Origin: Omphalotus guepiniiformis
Lineage: Eukaryota > Basidiomycota > Agaricomycetes > Agaricales > Omphalotaceae
Direction: 5' to 3'
Length of the DNA: 64,000 nucleotides
Assembly (NCBI GenBank): GCA_028554645.1
Contig: JAQOOI010000068.1
Coordinates: forward strand, 62,001 to 126,000
The position numbers and the translations under genes are program-made. The notes below the pieces were generated by a model, which had not been told where the DNA came from, did no database searches, and saw nothing but the letters and a program-made list of their open reading frames with translations. Below, piece after piece: positions 5,163-63,449 of this stretch. Within the stretch, counting starts at the first letter, position 1. Every line of letters starts with the position of its first letter.

Positions 5163-5192
5163 AATGAGTGCGAGAACAAAAAGAGCGTGCAC

Positions 5193-44554: not shown

Positions 44555-44790
44555 AATACTACTTAGGCTCTCGGAATTGCAAGTACACGAGTAACTCTGG
44601 CGAGCCCAATGTGTGGGTGCACGAATCATACGTTCGATTCAGAGAATCGTATCGTCAGCGCGAATTCGACACGAGAACGTAGTTTGACCCAACTTAGCCG
44701 CTTCACGATGAGCTCAAAGCGGGACACGACTTGATGATAGGTTGCTTGGAGGATGATTGTCCTGGGTCCATACATCTCATCTCATGCCAT
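44555..44790 (-). pseudogene. Kinase-like gene fragment (C-terminus and 3' flank only)
   Basis: The plus-strand words CTTAGGCTCTCGGAATTGCA, GCGAGCCCAATGTGTGGGTG, AACGTAGTTTGACCCAACTT and GATGAGCTCAAAGCGGGACA match, with scattered changes, the 3' flank and last exon of the two intact kinase genes (48924 and 59403 onward). Extra bases (ATTCAGAGAATCGTATCG, GCGAATTCGACACG) break the frame. The match stops near 44790, where the b561 promoter copy begins. It is a relic left by an earlier unit of the tandem array. Confidence 0.75.
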
Positions 44791-44792
44791 CA

Positions 44793-46270
44793 AAGGGTCC
44801 GGGGATTAGGTGCCTTCTTCGCCTCTTAACTAGATCTTACTGCTACGGGAAGAATAGGTGTCGAAGTAACGACCATCGAACCAATCAATGTGGGGATTGG
44901 CTATACATATAAAAACTGCACATTTACTTGTCCAAGAAGTAGAGCTGACAGTCGTCAATAACTCTCCACGTTTGGCTACTCTTCTGAATAATGTCCGCAC
45001 GGTGAGGTCTCCTTTTGGTTTTGATCGTGAAGCATGTCTTATACTATCAAAAAGCCCTCGAGAGATGGTCAGTATGCCTTTTTCATTCCGGCAAGTTTTC
45101 CTTTGAGGCTTGTATCACTTTTCGATTGAATCTGACGGGTACACGTTGAAGTCGGATGGCTCTACTATCGTCAACTTGGTTCGGAGCTTCGGTCTTCAAA
45201 TTCCAAATAGTGACGCCGAAGATACAGACCTTCAGCAACACTATGGCATGGGCAATGCGCAACTCGAGCTCACATGGGCAATGCGCAACTCGAGCTCACA
45301 AAAGCCCTTTCGTCAAACAGCTCGACACTTGATTCTTCAGGGTCTTCGTCTTCTTCATCATCTTTGGACGATAGCCTCCCTTTCCTTCCATACCAACACT
45401 TATTATTGCAGATGCTATCTTCTGTACTATTGGTTCCCTTCTTTTTCTCCCCGCAGGCGCCCTGCTTGCAAGATATCTCAGGACCTTCACTCCCATGTGG
45501 TTCACTGGCCACTGGATCGTACAGTTCGTATTCTGTGAGTGGAAGATGATATGTTGTGAGCGGTGTGCTCATCCTGCCTTCCAGCCGGACCTACTATCAT
45601 CATCGGCTTCGCTCTGGGTGTCCAGGCTGTTGTCAAAGCTGGCGCACCCCAATTCAGCGATGACCACAAGGTACTTTGATGAAGCGTTCATGCTGATATG
45701 AGTACCTTTGACCTTAATTTCCAGAGATGGGGACTACCAATTTTCATCTTGTACCTTGTTGAGTGCGGTTTGGGTGCTGTTATTCACTGGGTAAAGCCGA
45801 GAAGTGGGACGCCCTCCGCAAAATTACCTCCATGCCGTATTGGGTCTCCTCATCATTGCACTCGCTCTCTATCGAGTTCGCACTGGATATAAAACTGAGT
45901 GGCCGAGGACCACTGGACGTGGAGAGATCATGGATAGTGCCAATATCATTTGGTATGTCCGGGTTGTGGTGAGTATAGTACTCTTTTGTTGGTCTTTCCA
46001 GAATATGCTAGGGATTATAGCTTCTCCTGGTTCTGTACTTTGCGGGCTTAGCATTACTTCCCAGACAGTTCAAACAAGAAAAGGAGTATCGACACCGGAA
46101 GGCTCCCCCGAATGCGTCCAATTATGGAACAGAAGAGATAGGCTTGCAGAACGGCTTTACTCGCTTCGATTTCGCTCTATGGTTAGTAGGCACTGCCTTG
46201 CACGTTTGTTTCAGCTCTATTGTAGATGTAAGATGATGGTACGGACTGTGGACTTGAACCTTCCCACCAT
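44793..46270 (+). pseudogene. Cytochrome b561 gene relic A
   Basis: This is a decayed copy of the gene at 34.8-36.5 kb in opposite orientation. It keeps the promoter (44793-44925), then jumps from the TATA region straight to the middle of the DOMON domain (GAAGTAGAGCTGACAGTCGT at about 44936). The signal peptide and first exons, about 550 bp, are therefore missing. The 58-nt intron donor is destroyed (ATCAAAAAGCCCTC in place of ATCAAACGTAAGAC) and a 26-bp tandem duplication at 45248-45299 shifts the frame. The b561 core is still readable in pieces (LYLVECGLGAVIHWVKPR; LHAVLGLLIIALALYRVRTG; GLALLPRQFKQEKEYRH). Loss of start, signal peptide and frame argues for a pseudogene. Confidence 0.85.
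45248..45299 (+). repeat. 26-bp tandem duplication inside relic A
   Basis: The 26-bp unit beginning ATGGGCAATGCGCAACTC occurs twice back to back (45248-45273 and 45274-45299). The intact gene and relic B have it once. Because 26 is not a multiple of three it breaks the frame. Confidence 0.92.
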
Positions 46271-46605
46271 TGTGCTGCTATAGTCCTTGTTTATATAAAC
46301 TGTCCCTAGTCTAGTATATCGCATTTAAAGAATGAGAACGAATTGTTCCTCTTCACTATTCGAAGCATCTGTGGAGTTGACGGAGGTTTCGCGAGTATCA
46401 ACTATCTTACCAATGACGGGAGGCAACTCATCTAAGTTCGGTGTCGACTCAAAGTCAACGACCCAGAGCTCACGCTCACATGATCGTATTCGATGACTCA
46501 TCAATGACAAGCTTAAGTATCCCCTTGACTTTCTTCTCATAAAACACCATTGGATTCTTGAAATTTCACGAAGAGTTGGTGTTCTTGAACATAAACTTCT
46601 TACTG

Positions 46606-46689
46606 GTACGTTCATCCTGCCAACAGAATTCAGTTTTCCCTCTAAATCCAATTTTGTCTATATTCGTGGCGTTCATGTTTCATTTGTAG
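46606..46689 (+). other. 5'-UTR intron of F-box copy 1
   Basis: Donor CTGGTACGTTCATCC and acceptor GTTTCATTTGTAG bound 84 nt, some 60 nt before the start codon at 46750. The position and signals match the other F-box copies. Confidence 0.55.
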
Positions 46690-46749
46690 GATTTTCATTC
46701 AAACCCAAGTCTTCTTTCTGAAGCTTTCCGTTACACTTTCATTGCAAGG

Positions 46750-48804
46750 ATGCCAATTAGACGCCGTCGGACTACCAAAGCTCCAAAATCACCTATTCCG
46801 CTCTGCGACGAATGCGGCTATGCAACAGTTTTTGCATCTAGTAGACTCATGAACATGTTCAAGGCCCCGAAGGTGGATATTTCATCTACACTCCCAGGTG
46901 AAGTGACACCACAGGACGCGTCTGTGATCTCCGAATGGTTGCCCCAAGCACGTCGCGACCTCGCGCTATATACTAGGGAGTTAAACCGTCTTCGGTCACG
47001 TCTCGTCAGACTCGAGGGTATGCGAAACGATCTGCAGCAGCGCATTGATTGTCACGCCTCGCTCGTCGCACCTGTCGCTCGCTTGCCCACTGAGGTGCTG
47101 CAGGTGATCTTCCATCTGAGTTGCATTCCCGATGATAGCGAGGGGCCCCATCACAGGGAGCGAGGTGTCAGTCTGATGTACCCAGCCGGTCGGACAGCCC
47201 TTCGGTTGGCATTGGTCTGCTCGCGGTGGAGGAGCGTGGCATTGGATATCCCGGAGTTGTGGTCATACATCAATGTCTCGATACTCAGTCACCGCGAGCT
47301 TGCACCTATCTTGATGTTGCCTGAGGATCGTGGCAAGCTTCAGGGTCGTAAAGAGCTTGCACAGTGTATGGAGGCTCACCCTGTCCAGAATGTTGTCGAG
47401 CTCTATCTCGAACGCTCTCAAGCTCATCCTCTTGACATAACTCTGTACTGCCCATCAGAATTCAAGTCTACTCCTGAGCGTGTTGTTGAGCTCTCACCGA
47501 CAGAATGTGTCTGCAATCATTTTCTCTTGGAGGTGTACAAGATATTCTGTGCACATTCACGCCGATGGCGCACCGGTCACATCAACATAGCTCACGGTCC
47601 TCAGGCTCTGCCTCGAGGGGACGTTTATGGAAGGTGGCATGATGACGATGAGATGAATCGAGTTGCCAATGGGTACTATCGCTGTAAAGAACTCAATGTT
47701 CCCCTGCTCGAAATTTTAGATATATACCCCGGGCCTGCCACAATAAAACTCTCAAAAGCCCCGCGGCTTCATACACTACGAGTAACTGCGACGCCGGAGT
47801 GGAGCCGTTTTCCCATCGAAAAAGAAATTCTCAAAGCCCCCGCGCTTCGTTCATTGATTTTACGCAATTACGATGCTTCTGATTTGCAGAGTATCCTCCC
47901 AAAACTTGCAGTTCATTCTGGAGTTGATTTTGTCTTTGAATTGCCCCGCAAGGATAAGTGTTTCTCATTTTATGCCGATCACACAGCTCCAGCGGTGAAA
48001 TCGATTTTGGTCGACTGTAGTGTTTCACAATCGCTCAAATCCCTCGATGGGCTTTTAGAGTCGTTGACCGCGCCGAACGCTACAAACATGGAGTTTGTAC
48101 TTGATCAGAGAAAAGAAGCAACAAGGTTTCCTCGCGACCTTCTAGTTGGGATGATCAAGCGTTCAGCAATGCTGCTGACGATTATGAAGTTGGACGGGTT
48201 TTACATGCCGATTGAGGCGCTGGTGGATATCTTGAAGCTTTTACCGACCATTGAGGTGCTTGAACTGGGTGAAGGTTCTATCCGGAAGCTCAAGCGTGCA
48301 GTTAGGAAGTACCTCGACGAGCACGGCTCACAAGTGAAAGAAGCCAAGAGTGAAGGATCTCAGTGGAGAAAGTTGAAGATACACAATTTTACGTTTGTTG
48401 AAGAAACGTTCATCTGTTCCAAACTCATTCGGGAACTCACCCTCTCTTCCTTCTTGAATGGCTCGCACTCGGTCACTCCCCTCCTACCCAACCTAACATC
48501 CCTCAAATTGAGGTTTCGCCCTACATGTGATTCTCAAGATTTGAAGAACATGGTGTACTCCAGGCGGCGTGATCTGGATTTCCCTGCGTCGCATGCTGTC
48601 CAGTCTGGATCGAGCCCTGAAGCCGTAAGATTGGACTCGCCTCGAAGCACAGGAGGTCTGATATCACTAAAATTGGTTCTCATAATGGATACGCTTATAC
48701 TTGACAATCGAGCAAGCAGTATTTATGATGAATTTGAGGATGTAATGAAGGAGTTGAAGGATGAAGGATTGGATGCACAGATCAGCAGTAAAGATTACTA
48801 TTGA
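46750..48804 (+). CDS. F-box-like protein, copy 1 (full length)
   Basis: A single coding exon of 684 residues, and the most complete member of the local family. The order is: basic start MPIRRRRTTKAPKSPIPLCD with CDECGYATVF; SVISEWLPQARRDLALYTRE and RLRSRLVRLEGMRNDL (likely coiled coil, residues 60-98); F-box-like LPTEVLQVIFHLSCIPDD to CSRWRSVALDIPELWSYI (residues 108-165); then a long LRR-like region with LLEILDIYPGPATIKLSKAP, RLHTLRVTATPEW and LRSLILRNYDASDLQSILPK. The end is IYDEFEDVMKELKDEGLDAQ. No signal peptide or membrane segment. The family inference is a Skp1-binding SCF adaptor with a variable LRR-like substrate face. It faces the kinase-like gene, with 119 bp between stop codons. 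Confidence 0.88.
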   Translation: MPIRRRRTTKAPKSPIPLCDECGYATVFASSRLMNMFKAPKVDISSTLPGEVTPQDASVISEWLPQARRDLALYTRELNRLRSRLVRLEGMRNDLQQRIDCHASLVAPVARLPTEVLQVIFHLSCIPDDSEGPHHRERGVSLMYPAGRTALRLALVCSRWRSVALDIPELWSYINVSILSHRELAPILMLPEDRGKLQGRKELAQCMEAHPVQNVVELYLERSQAHPLDITLYCPSEFKSTPERVVELSPTECVCNHFLLEVYKIFCAHSRRWRTGHINIAHGPQALPRGDVYGRWHDDDEMNRVANGYYRCKELNVPLLEILDIYPGPATIKLSKAPRLHTLRVTATPEWSRFPIEKEILKAPALRSLILRNYDASDLQSILPKLAVHSGVDFVFELPRKDKCFSFYADHTAPAVKSILVDCSVSQSLKSLDGLLESLTAPNATNMEFVLDQRKEATRFPRDLLVGMIKRSAMLLTIMKLDGFYMPIEALVDILKLLPTIEVLELGEGSIRKLKRAVRKYLDEHGSQVKEAKSEGSQWRKLKIHNFTFVEETFICSKLIRELTLSSFLNGSHSVTPLLPNLTSLKLRFRPTCDSQDLKNMVYSRRRDLDFPASHAVQSGSSPEAVRLDSPRSTGGLISLKLVLIMDTLILDNRASSIYDEFEDVMKELKDEGLDAQISSKDYY

Positions 48805-48923
48805 GAAGTCCAGAGTTATGCCTCTTCAGATATATGACGATGCGAACAAAATGTACGTAGATACTCTTGTATATCCATCCAAAAAGATATTGTTGTGCCC
48901 TTTGAAAGTAGGCAGTCAACTAC

Positions 48924-50330
48924 TCAGGCTCTTGGAATTGCAGGCACACGAGTAACTATGTAAGCCACCTGGCGAGCCCAATGTGTGGGTGCCCGGATCA
49001 TTCGTTCGAGAATCGTCTCGTCTGCGCGAATCACACGAGAACGTAGTTTGACCCAACTCAGCCGCTTCAGGATGAACTCAAAGCGGGACACGACCTGGTC
49101 CATAGTAGGTCGCTTGGAAGGATCGTCCTGGGTCATATCTGAAATGAGTTCATGCATGAAGCTGAAGCAAGGATTGAGCTTTCCGTGCGGGCCACCCTAT
49201 CAGTGACGCTACCATTAGTCAAGGATGCACGGATTTAGAAAGCGAGGAGCAATACCCCAGTGAACTGTCGTCGGACGACGTTTCCGATACGGTACACGTC
49301 CACGAGAAAGGGATCGCAAGGCCGGATAGGCTGCAGCTTGAATTCCGGAACTGAAAGGTCACCTCCATATTGCGGAATCTCTTGGGCTAGACTAGAAGAA
49401 TCGTATTGACGACATAGATCAAAGTCTATGAAGTAGTACTTCACAGGTCGTTTTGAGCGAGACTTGGGATGGGCTTTGATTTTCCAGTCGTATGAGCGGA
49501 GGTCATAGATCGGATGCATAGGCTGGTCGAAAAGCGGCCTTGCATCCATCATAATGTTGTCCAGTTTGATATCGCTAGAACGCAGACGAGGACCGTTGTA
49601 TTCAGTGTCGTGATTGCGGGATGGAATATTTACTTATGAGCAACGCGATGACTATGCATGAATTGAAGACCCTGATCCCTGGAATGAACATCGCGAACAA
49701 AAACAGATAAGAGCCACAGACCAGACCTCGAAGATTTGTCGGCAAAACTCAACCACTTCGCCAATAGTGTAAAACGGAGGCGTATCCAAGAACCATTCCG
49801 AAAGAAACGGCATGACCATGAGAGTTTGTTCACTATATGGGAGTTGAAGAGTCTCATATATAGGAATACAATGATTGCGAGAGTCCGAAGCGTAAGGTTG
49901 TGATGAAAACAGAAGGCTCATTTCAAGCTCCTTTGAAGTTCCGTGCGTCACCTTCTTGAACAAAACAACCGAATCATCAGAGACGCGTCGCGCATCCATG
50001 ATATGACGAGCTTCCTAAGTATAAAACTTTAAGTCAGTTCCAAAACAATGATAATACATGTCCTACCGGGCCAAGATGACCATCCTCGCAGTCAAACCGG
50101 CTTATGTCCTTGCCCTTCCAAGATGGAACCCAACCAGGAGAGTATCGAGGTCGCAGGGCATATCCATGCTCTCGAAGCCACGAACAGTGGTCGCGCCAGA
50201 ATATTTCGTGATGTGACAGACCACCCTCTCTCTGCGGAAGCTCCCCGTCGACGCTACCTGCTGCTTGTGTCGGAGCAACGACTTGAGGCGTATCTGCAGA
50301 CGAAGTAGACATGGAAAATTGACGATTCAA
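48924..50330 (-). CDS. Kinase-like protein, copy 1
   Basis: Five exons. The first holds SREGGLSHH-type sequence then FWRDHCSWLREHGYALRPRY and GWVPSWKGKDISRFDCEDGH. It joins at GPEARHIMDARRV to the second exon. Other segments are NHCIPIYETLQLP, LMVMPFLSEWFLDTPPFYTI, GLQFMHSHRVAHNDIKLDN (joined across an intron), KYYFIDFDLCRQYD, DPFLVDVYRIGNVV and SDMTQDDPSKRPTMDQVVSR. This is the reduced protein-kinase fold often found in mushroom genomes. The catalytic Asp, Lys and Asn of the loop are kept (HND-I-K-x-D-N), but HRD is HND and DFG is DFD; I see no classical glycine-rich loop. It could be a weak kinase or a pseudokinase. The start is at 50328-50330 or 50310-50312. It is tail-to-tail with F-box copy 1. 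Confidence 0.8.
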
Positions 50331-50742
50331 ACCATGAACGTTTGAATAGCGAGCCTAGAAGACAATGTGGAATGGATTTACACCGGGACAGCCATGGACC
50401 CACAAATGATCAACCGTGAGAAGGAACGTGAAGCTGCAACAATAAGACCCCTTTACTTCTGAGGTAACCGTCAAAGAGCTAACGCGGATTCCTATTCAAG
50501 AGTTATTGTAGCTATTGTACTTTACTCTCTTCCGATGTGAATTCAGATAGGATTACTTGCATGTGTCAAAGCGAATTCATTCGCAACGGCAACGATTAAT
50601 ATTTGCTGCTTTCGGCATGCCTTGTCTTCAATGCATATCAGCTCAGTATGTATTTAATCCTGCCCGGAATCCTAACGGCGTTCTGGTTAGCTTCATCTCA
50701 GCGTACAGAGTGCTTCATTTACTCCTCCTTGACTTGTCGACC
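50331..50742. other. Divergent intergenic region
   Basis: This lies between kinase copy 1 (-) and the coiled-coil gene (+). An open frame continues upstream of 50743 to 50557, but the sequence before MEVLGAVANGAQ has no conserved look. No other feature is seen. Confidence 0.45.
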
Positions 50743-51766
50743 ATGGAAGTTCTTGGTGCTGTTGCCAATGGTGCTCAAATTACGACCGCGACCATGAAGG
50801 TCAGCAACGCCGTGGTCAAAGGGTTCCCAAGCCGCGGCGAAATATTGAAAGAATGCCAGTCAAGACAAGAATCAACCCTTGTCTGTCTTCAAAACTACTT
50901 CCCGTATACCCTGCATTCGTTGGAAAGACTAGAGGAATGGAAAGGCATGTATGACCGACTTCAAGAGTATGTCGCTATCACCTATCACAGTCTCTTATTG
51001 ACCTCAGGCTTAAAACTTACAGAAACGCCAGCAAACTGTCTGACCAGTATCAAACTCATTCGAAACTAAAAAATAAAGTTTGGCCTATCTCTATGCTCAG
51101 TCGCTGGCAAAACCGGGACAGCGCTGAAAAATTACGCTCGGCTTTATCACAATTGAACAACCGTGTTGGTGTAAGTGCCACCTTTATAAATTTATGCCAT
51201 GGATCTTTAACCTTGAAATGTAGGAGGCAACAGGCCGAGCTATTCGCGAGAAACTGGATCGCGATCTCGATACTGCCATACAGAACTTGAAGGATTTAGA
51301 TGAGGAAGTAGATTCCGCTAGAAAGGTAAAGCATTCTGCTGTAGTCTAGGTGAATTATACTCACTGACATGAACAGCAACTTGATGTCGGAAACGAAGAT
51401 CAGTTCGGAAAAATTCTAGAGGTTAGATCCTGCTCGTCATCATCTATAGACTTCTAACGCGGAGCTTACTAGATAATAACCCGAGACCTCGCCAAAGCTC
51501 GTCTCCCCAGCGAGGATGCAGTGGAAGCGTATGTCAGAGCAAGACGCCAGATGATAGGTGAGTACGTGAAAATGCCCATTTTTTTTACTTACTTAGCATA
51601 CGCAGATACCACTGGTTCTTCTCAAACTTCAGGTTCAACAGCAAACTCGACAGTACCATGCGTGCCGGCAGACCCTACAGCAACGAGTTCAACGAGTCCG
51701 ACAACTCCACCTCCCCTTGAGAACCCTTTCACGGTTGACATTATGCTCGAGGAAATCCCAAAATGA
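50743..51766 (+). CDS. Helical/coiled-coil protein of unknown function
   Basis: Exons join in frame: MEVLGAVANGAQITTATMKV to ...MYDRLQE; then NASKLSDQYQTHSKLKNKVW and WQNRDSAEKLRSALSQLNNR; then EATGRAIREKLDRDLDTAIQ and NLKDLDEEVDSARK; then QLDVGNEDQFGKILE, TRDLAKARLPSEDAVEAYVR and a Thr/Ser/Pro-rich end, stop at 51764-51766. The middle is strongly heptad-like, so a coiled coil is likely. There is no signal peptide, membrane helix or catalytic motif. I do not recognise the family; it lies between the duplicated blocks and occurs once in the window. The splice sites are canonical. Confidence 0.6.
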
Positions 51767-53094
51767 GAGGAATCCGTTATAGGCGAACGCGAGTTTAATG
51801 CATTCATTCACCGTACCATATAATATCCCGCAATGGGTTGTAGAAGTCATTACACCATGGACACCACGCACTGTATACCGTCATATTTTCTTGTATTTTT
51901 GATTATTTAATGTCTAGTATCGTCTCGTTCGTGTCGAAAGTTTAATCATATACATACCTTCAGCAATACAACACGTACGACGCAAAGCAATTGTTGCAAT
52001 CGACGCGGAGTCCCTCACTCGCGGAGGACTGGGCGATATGCTGTCTCCAGGGCCTACGATGGACCTCTATGGACCCACAATGACTCGGTGAGAATTGCCT
52101 GCGTGAACCTCACTCATGACTGCCGTCCCTTTTGTTCTTTGTTCTTTGCGTTGATGACCCCGTGAGCTTATGGACGTAAGAGACGCCGCAGTCAAGCCTA
52201 GTTTCAGCATTAGTACACAGAAACACGACTCGGAAGAGGCACGGTCGACCCACTAACTGGGCACCTGAGGATGTTAAGATGGTGAAGTGTTTTAGGGAGA
52301 CAATGAATACGATATACACGCTGGGCGAACCCGGAAAATCGTCCATACTTGCGAGTCTACAGTTCTCCATTCTCGATGACCGCGAGTGGGGTTCTTTGCG
52401 ACAATTGCTCTTTGACGTTGATAGCTCTGACTCGGAGCCCTAAGCCGAGTTGAATGCCAGGTTGCCAGGTTCTAATCCGAGTCGTCTTCTGTTGAGTTGA
52501 CCGTAAGATGAAAATTTATAGTCTGTTCAGCAATCGCCGGATTCTTGTGATCGCTGTGAGGGCCGGCGCTTGAAAGCTTGACTCGGCGCTCGTAAATCGT
52601 GCCGATGACCCTAAGGTTAAGGTTAGTATCATTGAACTGAACTGCCGTCTTGCCCGTTTGCAATTAACGTTCACGTTCAAATTACAAATTTTCATTCCCT
52701 GTACATTACAGTACCTGCACGCAAAGAACCAGTATCACCTAGTAAGCTAGTAACTTCTTTTTCTTCATTCAAAGCTAATTTTTCTACGAATTGCTAGTAT
52801 ACCCCTTACATCGGAGGGTCAGCCGGAACGGCACATTCTATAGTCGTCATACACTACTTGATATGCGCGAAGGTCGTGGTGGTAGTATGACTTCTCGACA
52901 ACTTAAACTAGCTCAGCAGACGACCAAGTCGTCTCCTGAAGCTACTCATGGCTCCGAGGATGAAGACGAGGGATGGAAACATCCTGCGGAGCTCATATAC
53001 AGCGTCGGGAGATACTGGACTGACAAGAAATCATCTTCTATCTCATCAGTAACGCACTTGCGGTTAACCCGACTTCTGGAGCTTCTCCTGGCGT
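51767..53094. other. Intergenic region before segmental duplication copy B
   Basis: No supported gene. A short frame at 52791-53094 (DMREGRGGSMTSRQLKLAQQ ... AELIYSVGRYWTDKKSSS) ends exactly where b561 relic B starts and may be a fragment of an unrelated gene truncated by the insertion or duplication. The breakpoint is near 53092-53095. Confidence 0.5.
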
Positions 53095-54110
53095 GTAGAT
53101 GCAGACCTTCAGCAACACTATGACATGGGCAATGTGCAACTTGATCTCACAAGAGCTCTCTCGTCAAACAGCTCGACGCTTGATTCTTCGGGCTCTTCTT
53201 CGCCTTCTTCGTCATCTTCTGATAACAGCCTCACTTTCCTTCCATACCGACGCTTAATTGTTGCACACGCTATCTTCTGTACTGTTGGGTTCCTTCTTTT
53301 TCTCCCCGCAGGCGCCCTGCTTGCAAGTACTCCTATGTGGTTCACTATCCAGTGGGTCGCACAGTTCGTATATGTTGTGAGCGGTTTGCTTATCCTCCCT
53401 TCCAGCCGGACCTACAATCATCATCGGCTTCGCTCTGGGTGTCCAGGCTGTGGTCAAAGCCCCCCAATTCAACGATGATCACAAGGTAACCTTGATAGAG
53501 CGTTTATGCTTGTATGAGTACCTCTGACCTTACTTTTCAGAGATGGGGACTAGCAATTTTCATCTTGTACCTTGTTGAGTGCGGTTTGGGTGCTGTTATT
53601 CACTGGGTAAAGCCGAGAAGTGTGGGACGCCCTCCGCAGAATTACCTCCATGCCGTATTAGGTCTCCTCATCATTGCACTCGCTCTCTATCGAGTTCGCA
53701 CTAGATATAAAACTGAGTGGCCGAGGACCACTAGACGTGGAGAGATCATGGATACCAATATCATTTGGTATGTCCGGGTTGTGGTGAGTATAGTACTCTA
53801 TTGTTGGTCTTTCCAGAATATGCTAGGGATTATAGCTTCTCCTGGTTCTGTACTTTGCGGGCTTAGCATTACTTCCCAGACAGTTCAAACAAGAAAAGGA
53901 GTATCGTCATCAGAAGGCTCCCCCGAATGCGTCCAATTATAGAACAGAAGAGAAAGGCTTGCAGAACGGCTTTACTCGCTTTGAGTTCGCTCTATGGTTA
54001 GTAGACACTGCTTGCACGTTTGTTTCAGCTCTATTGTAGATGTAAGATGATGGTACGGACTGTGGACTTGAACCTTCCCTACCATTGTGCTGCTATAGTC
54101 CTTGTTTATA
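53095..54110 (+). pseudogene. Cytochrome b561 gene relic B
   Basis: This holds only the part of the b561 gene from the end of the DOMON domain onward; promoter, signal peptide and most DOMON exons are absent. It has independent deletions: CTTGCAAGTACTCCTATG lacks about 15 bp of the parent, and GTCAAAGCCCCCCAATTCAA lacks 6 bp. Pieces such as LYLVECGLGAVIHWVKPRSV and LHAVLGLLIIALALYRVRT remain readable. Shared 3' changes with relic A (for example CCAGAATATGCTAGGGATTA) show that A and B descend from one degenerate copy. Confidence 0.85.
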
Positions 54111-54425
54111 TATACTATCCCTAGTCTAGTATATCGCATCTAAGAATGAAAACGAATTGATCCTCTTCACTATTCCAAGCATCTGTGGAGTTGACGGAGG
54201 TTTCGCGAGTATCAACTATCTTACCAATGACGGGAGGCAACTCATCTTTCGGCGTCGACTCAAACGACCCCCCCAGAGCTCGCGCTCACATGATCGTATT
54301 CAATGACTCATCAATGGAGTATCTCGGTTGGTGGCCCTTGACCTTGACTTTCGTCTCATAGAACATCCTTGGGTTTCGTGGAATATTACGAAGAGTTAGG
54401 ATAGTTGAACATAAACCTCTCATTG

Positions 54426-54576: not shown

Positions 54577-56448
54577 ATGCCAATTAGACGCCGTCGGACT
54601 ACCAAAGCTCCAAAATCACCTATTCCGCTCTGCGACGAATGCGGCTATGCAACAGTTTTTGCACCTAATAGACTCATGAACATGTTCACGGCCCCGAAGG
54701 TGGATATTTCATCTACACTCCCAGGTGAAGTGACACCACAGGACGCGTCCGTGATCTCCGAATGGTTGCCTCAAGCACGTCGCGACCTCGCGCTATATAC
54801 TAGGGAGTTAAACCGTCTTCGGTCACGTCTCGTCAGACTCGAGGTTATGCGAGACGATCTGCAGCAGCGCATTGACTGTCACGCTTCGCTCGTCGCACCT
54901 GTTGCTCGCTTGCCCACTGAGGTGCTGCAGGTGATCTTCCATCTGAGTTGCATTCCCGATGATAGCGAGGGCCCACATCACAGGGAGCGAGGTGTCAGTC
55001 TGATGTACCCCGCCGGTCGGACAGCTCTTCGGCTGGCATTGGTCTGCTCGCGGTGGAGGATCGTGGCATTGGATATCCCGGAGTTGTGGTCATACATCAA
55101 TGTCTCGATACTCAGTCACCGCGAGCTTGCACCTATCTTGATGTTGCCTGAGGATCGTGGCAAGCTTCAGGGTCGTAAAGAGCTTGCACAGTGTATGGAG
55201 GCTCACCCTGTCCAGAATGTTGTCGAGCTCTATCTCGAACGCTCTCAAGCTCATCCTCTTGACATAACTCTGTACTGCCCATCAGAATTCAAGTCTACTC
55301 CTGAGCGTGTTGTTGAGCTCTCACCGACAGAATGTGTCTGCAACCATTTTCTCTTGGAGGTGTACAAGATATTCTGTGCACATTCACGCCGATGGCGCAC
55401 CGGTCACATCAACATAGCTCACGGTCCTCAGGCTCTGCCTCGAGGGGACGTTTATGGAAGGTGGCATGATGACGATGAGATGAATCGAGTTGCCAATGGG
55501 TACTATCGCTGTAAAGAACTCAGTGTTCCCCTGCTCGAAATTTTAGATATATACCCCGGGCCTGCCTCAATAAAACTCTCAAAAGCCCCGCGGCTTCATA
55601 CACTACGAGTAACTGCGACGCCGGAGTGGAGCCGTTTTCCCATCGAAAAAGAAATTCTCAAAGCCCCCGCGCTTCGTTCATTGATTTTACGCAATTACGA
55701 TGCTTCTGATTTGCAGAGTATCCTCCCAAAACTTGCAGTTCATTCTGGAGTTGATTTTGTCTTTGAATTGCCCCGCAAGGATAAGTGTTTCTCATTTTAT
55801 GCCGATCACACAGCTCCAGCGGTGAAATCGATTTTGGTCGACTGTAGTGTTTCACAATCGCTCAAATCCCTCGATGGGCTTTTAAAATCGTTGACCGCCC
55901 CGAACGCTACAAACATGGAGTTTGTACTCGATCAGAGAAAAGAAGCAACAAGGTTTCCTCACGACCTTCTAGTTGGGATGATCAAGCGTTCAGCAATGCT
56001 GCTGACGATTCTGAAGTTGGACGGGTTTTACATGCCGATTGAGGCGCTGGTGGATATCTTGAAGCTTATACCGACCATTGAGGTGCTTGAACTGGGTGAA
56101 GGTTCTATCCGGAAGCTCAAGCGTGCAGTTAGGAAGTACCTCGACGAGCACGGCTCACAAGTGAAAGAAGCCAAGAGTGAAGGATCTCAGTGGAGAAAGT
56201 TGAAGATACACAATTTTACGTTTGTTGAAGAAACGTTCATCTGTTCCAAACTCATTCGGGAACTCACCCTCTCTTCCTTCTTGAATGGCTCGCACTCGGT
56301 CACTCCTCTCCTACCCAACCTAACATCCCTCAAATTGAGGTTTCGCCCTACATGTGGTTCTCAAGATTTGAAGAACATGGTGTACTCCAGGCGGCGTGAT
56401 CTGGATTTCCCTGCGTCGCATGCTGTCCAGTCTGGAGGCGAGCCCTGA
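54577..56448 (+). CDS. F-box-like protein, copy 2 (C-terminal frameshift)
   Basis: It is near-identical to copy 1 through 620 residues. Near 56440 the DNA reads CAGTCTGGAGGCGAGCCCTGA where copy 1 reads CAGTCTGGATCGAGCCCTGAA. One extra base puts a TGA in frame, so the protein ends SHAVQSGGEP (623 residues). The lost tail remains open in the next frame to 56630 (SPEAVRLNSPRSTGGLISLK ... YDEFEDVIKELKNEGLDAQI). About 62 C-terminal residues are therefore missing; the F-box and nearly all of the LRR-like region remain. Replacements against copy 1 are spread along the protein (for example ASSRLMNMFK to APNRLMNMFT, RWRS to RWRI). It could be functional but shortened, or at the start of decay. It is not followed by a kinase gene. 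Confidence 0.8.
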   Translation: MPIRRRRTTKAPKSPIPLCDECGYATVFAPNRLMNMFTAPKVDISSTLPGEVTPQDASVISEWLPQARRDLALYTRELNRLRSRLVRLEVMRDDLQQRIDCHASLVAPVARLPTEVLQVIFHLSCIPDDSEGPHHRERGVSLMYPAGRTALRLALVCSRWRIVALDIPELWSYINVSILSHRELAPILMLPEDRGKLQGRKELAQCMEAHPVQNVVELYLERSQAHPLDITLYCPSEFKSTPERVVELSPTECVCNHFLLEVYKIFCAHSRRWRTGHINIAHGPQALPRGDVYGRWHDDDEMNRVANGYYRCKELSVPLLEILDIYPGPASIKLSKAPRLHTLRVTATPEWSRFPIEKEILKAPALRSLILRNYDASDLQSILPKLAVHSGVDFVFELPRKDKCFSFYADHTAPAVKSILVDCSVSQSLKSLDGLLKSLTAPNATNMEFVLDQRKEATRFPHDLLVGMIKRSAMLLTILKLDGFYMPIEALVDILKLIPTIEVLELGEGSIRKLKRAVRKYLDEHGSQVKEAKSEGSQWRKLKIHNFTFVEETFICSKLIRELTLSSFLNGSHSVTPLLPNLTSLKLRFRPTCGSQDLKNMVYSRRRDLDFPASHAVQSGGEP

Positions 56449-56632
56449 AGCCGTAAGATTGAACTCGCCTCGAAGCACAGGAGGTCTGATATCACTAAAA
56501 TTGGTTCTCATAATGGATACGCTTATACTTGACAATCGAGCAAGCAGTATTTATGATGAATTTGAGGATGTAATAAAGGAGCTGAAGAATGAAGGATTGG
56601 ATGCACAGATAGAGGGTATAAACTCGTATTGA

Positions 56633-57211
56633 GCCTACAGTTAAGTACGAGTGTATAGTATATACGACAGATTCAATACATGAAATCCCTCCCTGAATAC
56701 CCTGGCGCTTCATTGATATGCCAACCCACAACTGTCATTTGTGAGATGACTCGCGGCTTCGGAAAAAAAAAAAGCAAATATCGCGGTCAAAGTTCAAAAT
56801 ATTTGGCGACAATACTATTCCGGAAAGCGGAGTACTGATGATTGATATGTATCAGCGCTCAGCTCAATGTTTTGTTCTCTCTATTCAATTCAAGTCGTTC
56901 ATTGAATGAGACTGCACAGTCCGAGTCGTTGTTCGGCTCACATGATCGTGTCTTGCTGCATCCTGAACGTTGATTGCAACGTTGAACCTTCGTAAGGCTC
57001 TTCAAGGTTCTCATACTACATTGAACATCATTGGAAGGCTTGGTGCTTTTGAACAAAAGTTCACTCGACGGGTACGTACATAGTGCGCATATACTCAGTA
57101 GCCTTCTAATTCACATTCGTGCGCATGCATCATGGGTTTCCCTTGTAGAACTATCCCTTTTCACCACTGCAGTGCTGCTTTCCGAAGTCATATTCCTCGT
57201 CTATCGCAAAT
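56633..57211. other. Spacer between F-box copies 2 and 3
   Basis: It contains a 12-nt poly-A run at 56762-56773 and the leader region of copy 3. The sequence between about 56640 and 57000 has no match to the spacer upstream of copies 1 and 2, so copy 3 sits in a different unit. Confidence 0.5.
57072..57148 (+). other. 5'-UTR intron of F-box copy 3
   Basis: Donor CGGGTACGTACATAG and acceptor GGTTTCCCTTGTAG bound 77 nt, 63 nt before the start codon. The sequence inside is unlike copies 1 and 2, but position and splice signals are kept. Confidence 0.5.
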
Positions 57212-59284
57212 ATGCCCATTAAACGCCGTCGAACTACCACTGGCAGATCTCGAAAAACACCTCCAATCCCACTCTGCACACGCTGCGGCTACGCAACCAT
57301 TTTTCCGACTAATAGGCTCTTCAACAATTTCAAGGCTCCGAAATCGATTAATCCGTCTACACCCCCAGGTGAAGTGATGCAATGGGATGCGTCTGTGATA
57401 TCCGAATGGCTGTCCAAGGCTCGCTGCGACCTTGCCGAATATACTAGAGAGGTAGATCGACTTCGATCGCGTCTCGTCAAACTGGAAGGTGTTCGAGACG
57501 GTCTCCAGGAACTCATTGACTACCATGCCGCGCTCGTCGCGCCTGTTGCTCGCCTACCAACTGAGGTGCTGCATATGATCTTCTGTCTGAGTTGCATTCC
57601 CGATGATAGCGAGGGGCCCCATCACAGGGAGCAAAATGTCAGTCTGATGTACCCCGCCGGTCGAACAGCCCTTCGGTTGTCCTTGGTCTGCTCGCGGTGG
57701 AGGAGCGTGGCATTGGATATCCCGGAGATGTGGTCTTATATTAATGTCTCGATACTCAGTCACCGCGAGCTTGCACCTATATTGATGTTGCCTGAGGATC
57801 GTGGCAAACTTCAAGGTTCTGACGAGCTTGCACGGTGTATGGAGGCTCACCCTGTCCAGAATGTTGTCGAGCTCTATCTCGAACGCTCTCAAGCTCATCC
57901 TCTTGACATAACTCTGTACTGCCCATCAAAATTCGAGTCTACTCCTGAGTATGTTGTTGAGCTCTCACCGACAGAATGTGTCTGCAACCATTTTCTCTTG
58001 GAGGTGTACAAGATATTCTGTGCACATTCACGCCGATGGCGCACCGGTCACATCAACATAGCTCACGGTCCTCAAGCTCTGCCTCGAGAGGACGTTTATG
58101 GAAGGTGGCATGATGACGATGAGATGAATGATGTTGCCAATGGATACTATCGCTGTAAAAAAAAACTCAGGGTTCCTCTGCTCGAAGTTTTGGATATATA
58201 CCCCGGGCCTGCCACAATAAAACTCTCAAAAGCCCCGCGCCTTCATACACTACGAGTAACTGCGACGCCGGAGTGGAGCCGTTTTCCCATCGAAAAAGAA
58301 ATTCTCAAAGCCCCAGCGCTTCGTTCGTTGACTTTACGCAGATACGACGCTTCTGATTTGCAGAGTATTCTCTCAGAACTTGCAGTTCATTCTGGAGTTG
58401 ATTTTGTCTTTGAATTGCCCCATAAGGATCGGCGTCACGCAATTTATGCCAATCAGATTCACCCAGCTCCAGCGGTGAAATCGATTTTGGTCGACTGTAG
58501 TGTTTCACAATCGCTCAGATCCCTCGATGGGCTTTTAAAATCGTTGACCGCCCCGAACGCTATGGACATGGAGTTTGTACTCGATCAGAGAAAGCAAGCA
58601 ACAAAGTTTCCTCACGACCTTCTAGTTGGGATGATCAAGCGTTCAACAATGCCGCTGACGATTCTGAAGTTCGACGGGTTTTACATGCCGATTGAGGCGC
58701 TGGTGGATATCTTGAAGCTTTTACCGACCATTGAGGTACTGGAACTGGGTGAAGGCCCTATCTGGGAGCTCAGACGTACAGTTACGAAGTACCTCGACGA
58801 GCACAGCTCACAAGTGAAAGAAGCCAAGAGTGAAGGATCTCAGTGGAGAAACTTGAAGATACGCAATCCCACGTTTGTTGAAGAAACCTTCATCTGTTCC
58901 AAACTCATTCGGGAACTCGCCCTCTCTTCCTTCTTGAATGGCTCGCACTCGGTCACTCCTCTCCTACCCAACCTAACATCCCTCAAATTGAGGTTTCGCC
59001 CTACATGTGATTCTCAAGATTTGAAGAACATGGTGTACTCCAGGCGGCGTGATCTGGATTTACCTGCGTCGAACACTGCCCAGTCTGGATTGGGCCCTGA
59101 AGCCGTGAGATTGAACTGGACTCGAAGCACAGGAGGTCTGATGTCACTAAAATTGGTTCTCATACTGGACACGCTTATACTTGACAATCGAGCAAGCAGT
59201 ATTTATGATGAATTTGAGGATGTAATAAAGGAGCTGAAGGATGAAGGATTGGATGCACAGATTAGCAGTAAAGATTTCTATTGA
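57212..59284 (+). CDS. F-box-like protein, copy 3 (full length, mosaic)
   Basis: A single exon of 690 residues. Residues 1-130 (MPIKRRRTTTGRSRKTPPIP; CTRCGYATIFPTNRLFNNFK; DLAEYTREVDRLRSRLVKLE; LPTEVLHMIFCLSCIPDD) agree with copy 4. From about residue 128 (DDSEGPHHRE) to the end (IYDEFEDVIKELKDEGLDAQ, then ISSKDFY) it agrees with copies 1 and 2. The switch falls inside the F-box coding region near 57590. A local insertion (CKKKLRVPLL in place of CKELNVPLL) comes from a run of A residues at 58159-58166. The gene is intact. It faces kinase copy 2 with 118 bp between stops, the same arrangement as copy 1 and kinase copy 1. Confidence 0.88.
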   Translation: MPIKRRRTTTGRSRKTPPIPLCTRCGYATIFPTNRLFNNFKAPKSINPSTPPGEVMQWDASVISEWLSKARCDLAEYTREVDRLRSRLVKLEGVRDGLQELIDYHAALVAPVARLPTEVLHMIFCLSCIPDDSEGPHHREQNVSLMYPAGRTALRLSLVCSRWRSVALDIPEMWSYINVSILSHRELAPILMLPEDRGKLQGSDELARCMEAHPVQNVVELYLERSQAHPLDITLYCPSKFESTPEYVVELSPTECVCNHFLLEVYKIFCAHSRRWRTGHINIAHGPQALPREDVYGRWHDDDEMNDVANGYYRCKKKLRVPLLEVLDIYPGPATIKLSKAPRLHTLRVTATPEWSRFPIEKEILKAPALRSLTLRRYDASDLQSILSELAVHSGVDFVFELPHKDRRHAIYANQIHPAPAVKSILVDCSVSQSLRSLDGLLKSLTAPNAMDMEFVLDQRKQATKFPHDLLVGMIKRSTMPLTILKFDGFYMPIEALVDILKLLPTIEVLELGEGPIWELRRTVTKYLDEHSSQVKEAKSEGSQWRNLKIRNPTFVEETFICSKLIRELALSSFLNGSHSVTPLLPNLTSLKLRFRPTCDSQDLKNMVYSRRRDLDLPASNTAQSGLGPEAVRLNWTRSTGGLMSLKLVLILDTLILDNRASSIYDEFEDVIKELKDEGLDAQISSKDFY

Positions 59285-59402
59285 GAAGTCCAGAGTTACG
59301 CCTATTCAGATATATGACAATGCGAACAAAATGTACATAGATACTCCTGTATATCCATCCAAAAGATATTGTTGTGCCCTTTGAAACTAGACAGTCAACT
59401 AC

Positions 59403-60798
59403 TTAGGCTCTTGGAATTGCAGGCACACGAGTAACTATGTAAGCCACCTGGCGAGCCCAATGTGTGGGTGCACGGATCATACGTTCGAGAATCGTCTCGT
59501 CTGCGCGAATCATACGAGAACGTAGTTTGACCCAACTCAGCCGCTTCAGGATGAGCTCAAAGTGGGACACGACCTGGTCCATGGTAGGTCGCTTGGAAGG
59601 ATCGTCCTGGGTCATATCTGAAATGAGTTCATGCATGAAGCTGAAGCAAGGATTGAGCTTTCCATGCGGTCCTCCCTGTATCAATCGACACCATTAGCAA
59701 GGCATGGCAGGGTCTAAGCAAACGAGGAGTGATACCCCAGTAAATTTTCGTCGGACGACGTTTCCGAGACGGTATACGTCCACAAGGAACGGATCGCAAG
59801 GTCTGCTTGGCTGCGACTTGAACTCAGGTACTGAAAGGTCACCTCCGTATGGTGGGATCTCTTGGGCTGGGCTAGAAGAGTCGTACTGCCGGCACAAGTC
59901 GAAGTCTATATAGTAGTACTTCACAGGCCGCTTGCTGCGGGGTTTTGCACGGGCTTCGACTTTCCAGTCGTAGGATCGAAGCTTATACACTGGATGCATA
60001 GGCTGGTCAAAGAGTGGCCTCGAGTCCATCATGATATTGTCAAATTTGATGTCACTAACTCGTAAAATTCAGTACTCATTCGATATGGCAAGAGATGAGA
60101 CTCTTGAATACATACTTATGGGCGATGCGATGACTATGCATGAATTGAAGACCCTGAATAACTTGGCTTAGTACACCATTCAATGAAAAAACTGATGTCA
60201 CCAAACCTCGAAGATTTGCCGACAGAACTCAACCATTTCACCGATGGTGTAGAATGGAGGATTATCCAAGAACCAAGTTGAAAGGAAAGGCATTACCATG
60301 AGAGTTCCTCCACTATTTGGGAGTTTGAGCGTCTCGTATATGGGCACACAGTGATTATGAGGTTCTGACGTGTAAGAAGAAAAGAGAAGACCCATTTCGG
60401 CTTCTCTCGAAGGCTGCGAAGAGTTGTGGACCAGTCTTTTCAGCATGACAATAGCACCGTCAGAGACCCGCCGCGCGTCCATGAGATGATCTGTTTCCTA
60501 GAAATAGTTAAGCTGAGGTCCGAGCATCCTTTCAAGCTGAACTCACCCATCCAAGATGACCATCTTCGCACTCGAAACGACTAATTTCCTTGCCTTTCCA
60601 AGACGGAACCCAACATGAATGATATCGTGGTCGCAGCATATATCCATGTTCCTCAAGCCAAGATTTATGGTCCCGCCAGAACTTCTCGGTACATGACAAC
60701 CCACCCTCACGTTGCGGAAGTTCCAGGTCGGTTCCTGCATTCAACGGCACAGGCTGAGGTTGAGTGGCCTGGTTCGATTCTGCGGAGGATGAAGTAAC
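59403..60798 (-). CDS. Kinase-like protein, copy 2
   Basis: Same five-exon layout as kinase copy 1. The preferred start is the ATG at 60796-60798 (MVTSSSAESNQATQPQPVPL), which matches the MSTSSADTPQ start of copy 1; an upstream ATG at 60873 would add a hydrophobic lead with no counterpart. The segments are FWRDHKSWLEEHGYMLRPRY, SWKGKEISRFECEDGHLGW, HCVPIYETLKLPNSGGTLMV, GLQFMHSHRIAHNDIKFDN (across an intron), KYYYIDFDLCRQYDSSSPAQ and the identical end WARQVAYIVTRVPAIPRA. HND and DFD replace HRD and DFG, as in copy 1. The last exon is nearly identical to copy 1, while the N-terminal exons differ more, fitting partial homogenisation. All frames are open, so both copies look functional. Confidence 0.8.
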
Positions 60799-61421
60799 CA
60801 TATAGAGAATCAACTCAAAGTAATGAAGACATGCAAGCCCTCGCAGCAAAAAAGGCAGTGAACGAGGACCCACGGAGGTTCATAGAGAAAAGAAGACAAG
60901 AGGATTCGTTGGTAAGTTGTACCACAAGATCTGTAACATCAATCCGTATTGTATTGTTCACGAGTTGTGAAGATCATCGCAATCTCCATGAGAGCTAGTT
61001 CACTATGCGCTGTATCAGTAATGCTCTCTATGCATTGGCTTAAATTAATCACCAACGCTAGCACGAATTGCTCCGAGTCTTGAACGTTGGAGACCGTCTT
61101 TTGCACTGTTGAGATGACCATACAGCTAAATATTGGTATCTGTTCAGCAATCAAAGTCATTTTTTGTTGAACCGAGAACCCCAAATCACTGGAAGCACAG
61201 GGAAGAAATACGCAGGAGAGGCGCCTTCGAAGGCCGTATTCTTGTGGTCGCTGTGAGAAGCATTCTTTCATCGGGCCGCCGCTGCCGGCCAACCTGGTCC
61301 TGAACAGTGAAAAGTGGCGCCTGCATTCCTATCAGTGCAGTATTTTATACTGTATAACGAAGAGAATCATGTATTAATTAGACATCTCAAAGTACTACTT
61401 CCTTCAATTCAATAATACTTC
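60799..61421. other. Intergenic region
   Basis: It contains a 117-codon open frame on the minus strand (60939-61292; includes FSVQQKMTLIAEQIPIFSCM and LVINLSQCIESITDT) with no recognisable family and no splice context. I cannot support it as a gene. Short words (CTGTTCAGCAATC, ATTCTTGTG-TCGCTGTGAG) also occur near 52525-52560, hinting at a shared old sequence. Confidence 0.4.
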
Positions 61422-63449
61422 TTAGCCTTCATCTGTGCATCGATTCCCATATCCTTCAGCTCCTTTATCACAAGCGTCAAATTCATCATATACTGTCTTT
61501 GCTCGATTCTCAAGCCTAACCAAATCCATTATAAGAACCAGTTTGATTGATTTAAGTGGCGCTACACCTCCTGCGCTTCGAGTCAAGTCAGTGTTCGAGT
61601 ACAAGACTACGGCTTCAGAGTCCGATTCCTGAGACTGGACAGTGTCGGGTGCAGCAGCTAACCGCCTAAAATATACCATTTCCTTCAAGTCTTGAGCGTC
61701 ACATGTAGGGCGAAAGGTCAATTTGAGGGATGTCAGGTTGGGTAGGAGGGGGGTGGTATCAGCATGCGAGCCATTCGGGTAAGAAGAGCGTGTGAGGTCC
61801 CGAATAAGTTTGGAACAGATGAAGCTTGTATTAATGTGCTCGGCCCTATACTTGCTGACGTAGAAACTCCATTGATACTCTTCACTATTGGGCCCTTTGA
61901 CTTCAATTCCCTTCGAGCGCATGTTCTTAATTTCACGCCTGAGATCTGGAAAAGAGGCCTCAACCACTTCAAGCACTTCAATCGTCGGCAACAGCTTCAA
62001 AATCTCCACCAGCGCGTCGTTCCCCATGCAAAATCCCTTAAACTTGAGAACCGTCAGCGGCATCGCTGATCGCTTGAGCATCCCAATTAGAGCCCTCTGC
62101 GGAAACAAGCTTGCTCCCCCATTTAACTGCATTTTTGTAGCGTTTGGGAAACTGAACTGATTTAAGATGTCCCAGAAGGACGTCCACCAACCACCATCAA
62201 CTGTAATTGACTTCACCGCCGGAGCTCTGAAAGCACTTCTCACGCGGTGATCGCACTCCTTACCACTGGGCGTTTCGAAGAAGACATCAACTCTCGAATC
62301 GACTGCAAGTGCCGGGAGAATCCAGGTCAGATCACAGGTTTGATATTTGCGTAATGTCAACGAACGAAGACAGGGCGCTTTGAAGATAGCTTTGTCAAAG
62401 AGAGATTGGCCCCAAGGCGTCGCAGTTAGACGTAGCGTATGGAGGCGCGGGGTTTCTGCGAATCGAATTTCAGCAGGCCCGGGGTATATGTCCAGAACTT
62501 CGAGGAGGGGTACATTGAGAGTTTCATAGCTGTCGTCGTCTTCATCAGAATCTTGGAGATCATGCGACCTTTCATGAGTGACTCCTTGAGTCAGAGGCCC
62601 AGGACCATGAACTAAGTTGACGTGAGCGGTGCGCCATCGGTATGACTCATCGCAGAGTATCATGAACACCTCCGAGAGAATATGATTGCAGATACATTCC
62701 GTCAGTTTTAGATCAGCGACACGTTCTGGAGTGGGAAAGGTTTTTGAACGACAGTACAGACGTATCGCAAGAGGGTGATTTTGAGAGCGTTCGCAATAGA
62801 GGTCGACGATATCCTGGATAGGGTTAACATTTTCGTAGTCCAGAAGTTCATCACGACGGTAACGGGCATGTTCATCAACCAACGCCAAGAACGGTGCTAG
62901 CTCACGGTGTTTGGATATCGAGACATTGATATAAGACCACATTTCCGGGATACACAATGCCACGCGCCTCCACCGCGAGCAGACCAACGCCAACCGAAGG
63001 GCTGTCCGACCGGCAGGGTACATCAAACTGGCATTGTGCTTCCTGTGATGGGAGCCCTCGCTTTCATCTGGAATGCAACTCAGACAGAAGATCATGTGCA
63101 GCACCTCAGTTGGTAGGCGAGCAACAGGCGCGACGAGCGCGGTATGGTGGTCAATGCGTTGCTGCAGACTATCTCGAACGCCCTCGAGTTTGACGAGACG
63201 CGATCGAAGTCGGTCTACCTCTCTGGTATATTCGGCGAGGTCGCAGCGAGCCTTGGGCAGCCATTCGGATATCACAGACGCATCCCGTGGCATCACTTCA
63301 CCTGGGGGCATAGACGGATTCATTAATTTCGGAGCCTTGAAATTGTTGAAGAGTCTAGTAGTCGGAAAGATGGTTGCGTAGCCGCATCCTGTACAAAGTG
63401 GAATAGGTGTTTTTCGAGCTTTGGTAGTCCGACGGCGCCTTATGGGCAT
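61422..63449 (-). CDS. F-box-like protein, copy 4 (divergent, altered C-terminus)
   Basis: A single exon of 675 residues on the opposite strand to copies 1-3. The N-terminus matches copy 3 (CTGCGYATIFPTTRLFNNFK; DLAEYTREVDRLRSRLVKLE; LPTEVLHMIFCLSCIPDE). The LRR-like part is the most diverged of the family (LVDEHARYRRDELLDYENVN; YCERSQNHPLAIRLYCRSKT; DESYRWRTAHVNLVHGPGPL). At the end the frame reads VYDEFDACDKGAEGYGNRCT and stops. One base fewer at about 61470 would give VIKELKDMGIDAQMKAKKYY, the family-type ending, so a 1-nt insertion has replaced the last 20 residues. The rest is open and probably functional. Confidence 0.85.
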   Translation of the reverse strand: MPIRRRRTTKARKTPIPLCTGCGYATIFPTTRLFNNFKAPKLMNPSMPPGEVMPRDASVISEWLPKARCDLAEYTREVDRLRSRLVKLEGVRDSLQQRIDHHTALVAPVARLPTEVLHMIFCLSCIPDESEGSHHRKHNASLMYPAGRTALRLALVCSRWRRVALCIPEMWSYINVSISKHRELAPFLALVDEHARYRRDELLDYENVNPIQDIVDLYCERSQNHPLAIRLYCRSKTFPTPERVADLKLTECICNHILSEVFMILCDESYRWRTAHVNLVHGPGPLTQGVTHERSHDLQDSDEDDDSYETLNVPLLEVLDIYPGPAEIRFAETPRLHTLRLTATPWGQSLFDKAIFKAPCLRSLTLRKYQTCDLTWILPALAVDSRVDVFFETPSGKECDHRVRSAFRAPAVKSITVDGGWWTSFWDILNQFSFPNATKMQLNGGASLFPQRALIGMLKRSAMPLTVLKFKGFCMGNDALVEILKLLPTIEVLEVVEASFPDLRREIKNMRSKGIEVKGPNSEEYQWSFYVSKYRAEHINTSFICSKLIRDLTRSSYPNGSHADTTPLLPNLTSLKLTFRPTCDAQDLKEMVYFRRLAAAPDTVQSQESDSEAVVLYSNTDLTRSAGGVAPLKSIKLVLIMDLVRLENRAKTVYDEFDACDKGAEGYGNRCTDEG

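What the first reader, a model, noticed from the sequence alone, without database searches (positions are those of the whole stretch)
44555..63449. Young tandem array of F-box genes with interleaved kinase genes and b561 relics
Four near-complete F-box copies, two intact kinase-like copies, one kinase fragment and two b561 relics lie within 19 kb, and a fifth F-box copy lies at the left edge of the window about 45 kb away. Two different unit types overlap (b561 relic + F-box; F-box + kinase), so at least two rounds of unequal crossing-over or segmental duplication are needed. The conserved genes from 1.7 to 44.3 kb show no such copies. Rapid local birth and death of F-box genes is known in fungi, but this combined unit is one I do not recognise.
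Basis: partly seen in the sequence, partly recalled or inferred. Interest (0 to 1): 0.75.

Follow-up and report, generated by a model that had tools for sequence, protein, structure and literature searches.

The report
Mosaic mushroom F-box gene cluster
A mushroom-type fungus carries a local cluster of related F-box genes (probable selectors of proteins for destruction) that have copied and partly overwritten one another and trapped broken pieces of neighbouring genes; it is a clear example of a known kind of gene-family evolution, not a new system.

Summary
Mostly a real observation, partly misread. Four F-box copies (one frameshifted), two complete kinase genes, a kinase fragment and two b561 relics lie at 44.6-63.4 kb, with a fifth F-box gene at the left edge. 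Corrections: (1) the b561 parent is inside the window, 34.47-36.65 kb, opposite strand; (2) the cluster has nine F-box copies over 107 kb of the contig; (3) 'F-box + kinase' is not a young unit. K1 and K2 differ at dS 1.2-1.6 in exons 1, 2 and 4 but 0.08 in the last exon; F3 and F5 differ at dS 0.74 N-terminally but 0.06-0.13 beyond residue 200. A 2.1-kb tract (47,077-49,177; 94% inside, 71% outside) spans both convergent 3' ends: interlocus gene conversion. F5 is a chimera (AU p 2e-5 and 9e-6, opposite trees). The kinase is absent beside 0 of 5 homologous F-box genes elsewhere. Best reading: a lineage-specific F-box cluster evolving by birth-and-death plus conversion, with kinases as neighbours and b561 pieces as dead passengers. 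New member of a known kind.

The parts
3..920 (-). F2: 5' part of an intact F-box ORF cut by the window edge (full ORF C68:60872-62920, 684 aa)
34470..36646 (-). Parental cytochrome b561-domain gene with promoter and 3' flank; source of both relics
   Evidence: PF03188 E 9.6e-12 on a hand-spliced protein
44558..44768 (-). K0: fragment of the last exon of a K1/K2-type kinase, next to the b561 relic
   Evidence: 80.5-81.9% to K1/K2; tblastn 61 residues
44811..46432 (+). b561 relic 1: inverted copy, keeps a piece of promoter and the inferred introns, lacks about 570 bp of the gene's 5' part
   Evidence: 79.5% over 1572 columns to 34470-35977 plus a 98-column block to 36549-36646; sequence
46750..48804 (+). 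F3: intact intronless F-box ORF, 684 aa
46747..48746 (.). F3/F4 high-identity tract (98.5% inside, 91.1% outside)
47077..49177 (.). Conversion tract shared by F3-K1 and F5-K2 (partner about 57550-59657): 93.8% inside, 70.9% outside; most of the F-box ORF, the intergenic DNA and the last kinase exon
48927..50312 (-). K1: five-exon protein kinase-like gene, 387 aa (exon borders by eye), convergent with F3
52562..53095 (+). Dead 5' fragment of a neighbouring gene (other copy C68:131669-131140, 97%), fused to relic 2
53095..54246 (+). b561 relic 2, 5'-truncated, inverted relative to the parent
54577..56448 (+). F4: F-box copy whose frame ends at 623 aa; homology continues to about 56617
57212..59284 (+). 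F5: intact chimeric F-box ORF, 690 aa; N-terminus F6-like, remainder F3/F4-like
59406..60801 (-). K2: five-exon protein kinase-like gene, 390 aa (exon borders by eye), convergent with F5
61422..63449 (-). F6: divergent F-box ORF, 675 aa, last ~20 residues unlike the other copies

Best explanation
A lineage-specific F-box gene cluster in an Agaricales-type mushroom. Its members probably serve as substrate receptors of SCF ubiquitin ligases: an N-terminal stretch, an F-box, and a faster-changing C-terminal part (function inferred from domain content and constraint). Shown from sequence: copies lie in both orientations and arose at DNA level; an old split gave two F-box sequence types (A and B) and two convergent F-box/kinase pairs; a 2.1-kb stretch was later homogenised between F3-K1 and F5-K2, which made F5 a chimera (B-type N-terminus, A-type remainder) and made the two pairs look like a young repeat; F3 and F4 are homogenised too, by conversion or by recent duplication. 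Pieces of two flanking genes (b561, 8-10 kb to the left; another gene 16 kb to the right) lie in the cluster in inverted orientation and are dead. Inferred: the repeats act as a local hotspot for ectopic recombination or template-switch repair, and kinases and b561 pieces are neighbours and passengers, not parts of one module.
For: Nine homologous copies on C68 and five more distant ones elsewhere. F-box segment dN/dS 0-0.34 against 0.27-1.17 in C-terminal segments, 21 pairs of seven copies. K1-K2 dS 1.22, 1.56, 1.45 in exons 1, 2, 4 but 0.084 in exon 5 (5 synonymous changes in 89 codons). F3-F5 dS 0.74 for residues 1-110 against 0.06-0.13 for 200-684. Two-sided tract. F5 trees conflict: AU p 1.99e-5 and 8.98e-6 in opposite directions; MaxChi 0 of 2000 permutations for 4 of 4 F5 triplets. 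b561 parent and relics align through inferred introns. The 97% gene fragment ends where relic 2 begins. Kinase beside 0 of 5 outside F-box genes.
Against: Uneven identity is found in 6 of 6 pairs scanned, controls included (each 0 of 300), and 11 of 12 MaxChi triplets gave 0 of 2000, so those scans alone are not diagnostic; the size of the effect (chi2 346 and 105 against 21, 34, 22 in the three controls and 55 for F6/F7) and the dS steps carry the case. dS also varies along pairs with no proposed conversion (about 2- to 3-fold: F1-F2 0.08-0.19, C65 pair 0.50-0.96, F3-C20 0.18-0.50, F3-F6 0.32-0.84), against about 12-fold for F3-F5. F3-F4 could be a plain recent duplication with a replaced promoter. 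Conversion direction, SCF binding and expression are not shown. The structure model failed (pLDDT 38.9), so a leucine-rich-repeat C-terminus is not shown.
Confidence: 0.83

Rival explanations
1. Two rounds of unequal crossing-over duplicated whole young units (b561 relic + F-box; F-box + kinase).
For: Collinear matches 45272-48782/53123-56610 (93.5%) and 46741-50250/57203-60730 (84.6%).
Against: Kinase exons 1, 2 and 4 are at dS above 1.2 while exon 5 and most of the F-box ORF are near 0.1; identity steps on both sides; F5's N-terminus belongs with F6-F9 (AU p 2e-5). The b561+F-box half of the proposal is weakened by uneven identity but not excluded.
Confidence: 0.09
2. F-box and kinase are a co-selected functional pair (for example a recognition or signalling module) duplicated as a unit.
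For: Two convergent pairs plus a third kinase fragment; both kinases constrained, dN/dS about 0.23, 0.12 and 0.06 in exons 1, 2 and 4 (computed).
Against: No such kinase by 0 of 5 outside homologues, and none next to F1, F2, F7, F8 or F9 on C68; the other kinase matches do not lie next to the C20, C65 or C71 homologues.
Confidence: 0.1
3. Retroposition or transposon carriage spread the F-box gene.
For: F-box ORFs are intronless; a retroelement with 99.6% identical flanking repeats lies beside copy F8.
Against: F1-F4 share about 290 bp of upstream DNA; b561 relics keep inferred introns; distant homologues also have long open frames (704-722 aa in four of five, 557 in the fifth); no shared terminal repeats seen by eye in the flanks printed (no systematic border search was made).
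Confidence: 0.06
4. Assembly artefact (haplotigs or mis-joined repeats).
For: The contig is only 176.7 kb and holds near-identical copies F8/F9 (99%).
Against: Window copies differ by about 1.5-30% with different flanks, and the b561 parent region has one full-length match in the assembly.
Confidence: 0.04

Closest known systems
Expanded F-box (F-box-like, PF12937) gene families of Agaricomycetes
   Same: Many F-box genes per genome: at least 111 F-box-like matches here (a lower bound); 210 F-box genes annotated in Flammulina filiformis (PMC7567395, passages read).
   Different: Only 2 distant protein relatives (30% identity over 16-18% of the query) among the 7998 scored candidates (capped); local conversion and trapped gene fragments are documented here.
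Agaricomycete protein kinase-like family (PF00069), here K1 and K2
   Same: 414 homologues at E <= 0.001, best 120 listed; the named ones are mushroom-forming fungi as far as I read them; the Marasmius, Stygiomarasmius and Paramarasmius hits among the first 13 are 50-55% identical.
   Different: Nothing unusual found; a DFD in place of DFG is shared by three of the nine homologues aligned beyond doubt in form (P0005, P0006, P0008, P0009, P0014 read DFD; motif name recalled).
Birth-and-death evolution with gene conversion in clustered families
   Same: Intact copies, broken copies and homogenised tracts side by side.
   Different: One tract crosses two unrelated convergent genes at once and so mimics a recent composite duplication.

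Membership tests
F-box-like (PF12937) proteins | F-box-like domain above the curated cut-off | tested here: met
   4 of 4 window copies scanned, 26.8-33.6 bits against 24.3
F-box-like (PF12937) proteins | Purifying selection on the F-box | tested here: met
   dN/dS 0-0.34 in residues 108-176, 21 of 21 pairs of seven copies
SCF substrate receptor | Binding to Skp1/Cul1 and to a substrate | not testable with these tools
   Needs interaction assays
SCF substrate receptor with LRR C-terminus | Leucine-rich-repeat fold | tested here: inconclusive
   No LRR family among Pfam hits at E <= 1; structure model unusable, pLDDT 38.9
Protein kinase (PF00069) | Kinase domain above cut-off | tested here: met
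   46.9 and 51.9 bits against 31.7, 2 of 2 hand-spliced proteins
Young duplication of an F-box+kinase unit | Even, low synonymous divergence across the unit | tested here: not met
   dS 1.22, 1.56, 1.45 in exons 1, 2, 4 against 0.084 in exon 5; F3-F5 0.74 against 0.06-0.13
Interlocus gene conversion | Two-sided step in divergence and conflicting trees | tested here: met
   shown for F3-K1/F5-K2; for F3/F4 suggestive only
Retroposed copies | Loss of introns in the copies | tested here: not met
   b561 relics align through inferred parental introns; not informative for the F-box genes, which are intronless throughout

The most novel reading that the evidence does not exclude
The cluster is a diversification locus: conversion shuffles the constrained N-terminus/F-box adaptor module against a fast-changing substrate domain, so that new SCF receptors (for example for self/non-self recognition) arise, and the same break-repair activity copies inverted fragments of flanking genes into the array.
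Probability: 0.1. Interest if true: 0.65.

Novelty: new member of a known kind. Interest (0 to 1): 0.33.

Why it matters
It shows how one conversion tract across two convergent genes can mimic a recent composite duplication, and it gives a mapped case of F-box chimera formation in a mushroom genome. If the chimerism proves polymorphic among strains, the idea of F-box clusters as recognition loci becomes testable.

Tried and rejected
A conserved F-box/kinase module was rejected: kinase beside 0 of 5 outside F-box genes (C20, two on C65, two on C71). Retroposition was rejected for the b561 relics, which keep inferred introns. Subtelomeric position could not be judged: no TTAGGGx4 in the assembly. 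A repeat-family origin of the segment 52562-53095 was rejected: two places in the genome, the second being the 5' part of an open frame. Positive selection is not shown: whole-gene dN/dS 0.32-0.59 in 45 of 45 pairs of ten sequences, F4 truncated and F5 chimeric included. Some segments exceed 1 (F1-F3 residues 1-60 at 2.35 on few changes; pairs with F7 at residues 1-60, where F7's start differs; F3-F6 residues 176-300 at 1.17) and none was tested formally. AlphaFold with four sequences gave pLDDT 38.9, so no fold search was made.

Work on FunK1 kinase expansion in Coprinopsis is recalled, not read.

Results that weaken single tests: 11 of 12 MaxChi triplets gave 0 of 2000 (F2 against F1/F3 gave 362 of 2000). 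Four of the breaks (110,737-110,786) lie at the 3' end, where the alignment runs into unlike flanks, and are not used. In one search the first and last rows likewise mix unlike flanks.
Full report
Setting. The window is contig C68:62001-126000 of a genome of 42,492,304 bases in 80 contigs; C68 has 176,695 bases. Two protein searches place it among mushroom-forming fungi: the kinase's Marasmius, Stygiomarasmius and Paramarasmius relatives among the first 13 hits are 50-55% identical, although the two highest-scoring hits are longer Lentinula and Mycena proteins at 46 and 43%; a homocysteine methyltransferase in the window is closest to Stygiomarasmius (52%) and Dendrothele (50%).

What is there. 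Self-comparison of the window and of the whole contig, with a genome search, gives nine homologous F-box copies on C68: F1 from 52,375(+), F2 60,872-62,920(-, cut by the window's left edge), F3 to F6 in the finding's interval, F7 up to 136,460(-), and two broken copies F8 and F9, 99% identical to each other. Further homologues lie on C20 (70% identical protein), C65 (two, 40-41%) and C71 (two, 40-41%). Four of four window copies carry an F-box-like domain above Pfam's cut-off. The genome has at least 111 F-box-like matches, nine of them on C68, so F-box genes are abundant here in general.

The kinases. K1 and K2 are five-exon genes (borders by eye) convergent with F3 and F5. Both hit PF00069. 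A fragment of the last exon of a third lies at 44,558-44,768.

The b561 relics. Both are inverted copies of a gene in the window at 34,470-36,646(-). Relic 1 keeps a piece of promoter but lacks about 570 bp of the gene's 5' part; relic 2 is truncated at 53,095. Inferred introns are kept, so the copying was at DNA level. Relic 2 is fused at 53,095 to a 0.53-kb, 97% identical copy of the 5' part of an open frame at C68:131,669 and leftwards. Pieces of genes on both sides of the array thus lie in it in inverted orientation. The relic 2 junction shows 1-2 bp of shared sequence at most (by eye).

Conversion. Along F3-K1 against F5-K2 (150-column bins) identity is 70-81% up to about 109,137, 88-97% from there to about 111,227, and 66-81% beyond until homology ends near 112,260. 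A segment scan places the tract at 109,077-111,177 (93.8% inside, 70.9% outside; 0 of 300 permutations reach it). The scan was significant for 6 of 6 pairs, controls included, because constraint differs along the genes, so I rely on synonymous sites. K1-K2 dS is 1.22, 1.56, 0.35 (13 codons) and 1.45 in exons 1-4 and 0.084 in exon 5 (five synonymous changes). F3-F5 dS is 0.74 for residues 1-110, 0.22 for 110-200 and 0.06-0.13 for 200-684, while F5-F6 goes the other way (0.34, 0.28, then 0.50-0.69). Pairs with no proposed conversion vary about 2- to 3-fold along their length (F1-F2, the C65 pair, F3-C20, F3-F6). Trees of the two parts place F5 with F6-F9 (N-terminal part) and with F1-F4 (middle part); the alternatives are rejected at AU p 1.99e-5 and 8.98e-6. 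F5 is therefore a chimera, and the last kinase exon lies in the same tract. F3 and F4 are 95-100% identical over the ORF but 76-85% in the promoter, and identity falls to 87% at the end of the ORF and about 41% beyond, where F4's downstream DNA matches F2's instead (89%). This is suggestive of conversion but a recent duplication with later replacement is possible.

Order of events. Old: the split of A- and B-type F-box genes and of K1/K2. Intermediate: the A-type copies F1, F2, F3 (dS 0.12-0.15) and the b561 copies (mostly 8-14% diverged from the parent over the gene body, with a 19% bin near the 5' end of relic 1, and 22-32% toward the 3' flank). Recent: F3/F4 homogenisation (dS 0.039), the 97% gene fragment and the 99% F8/F9 pair. 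The array is layered, not one young burst.

Function. The F-box segment is constrained (dN/dS 0-0.34, 21 of 21 pairs) and the C-terminal segments less so (0.27-1.17). That is what one expects of SCF receptors with a stable adaptor and a changing substrate domain; this is inference. In Flammulina filiformis 210 F-box genes were annotated, 80 of them developmentally expressed (PMC7567395, passages). Young genes of mushroom fungi are described as being under weaker constraint (PMC8893723, passages). The kinases are constrained but are not found beside this F-box family elsewhere in the genome, so I read them as neighbours caught in the same recombining stretch.

Verdict. It is a good example of a known process.

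Noticed in passing
C68:139253-153619 (right of the window; loci L039, L040): An LTR-type retroelement (judged by eye from its long frames, no family scan) with 1.24-kb flanking repeats 99.6% identical, beside F-box copy F8; a recent insertion next to the array.
   Followed up: partly
C68:153.8-157.2 kb (loci L040, L041): Dense minisatellite-like repeats between the LTR element and the broken copy F9.
   Followed up: no
window 50557 to about 51770: A spliced-looking gene between K1 and the 0.53-kb gene fragment; no Pfam hit at E <= 0.1 for its first 170 aa.
   Followed up: partly
window 3621-5192 (-): An unrelated F-box-like ORF below Pfam's cut-off (19.0 against 24.3 bits).
   Followed up: no
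C9:406.3-407.6 kb, C26:37.9-39.2 kb, C36:12.3-13.5 kb: Three places with the same or nearly the same scores for a kinase of this family; perhaps haplotigs or a recent triplication.
   Followed up: no
C68:54640-54946 and 127643-127963: A 0.3-kb segment beside F1 recurs inverted at 89% just right of the window, another local inverted copy.
   Followed up: no
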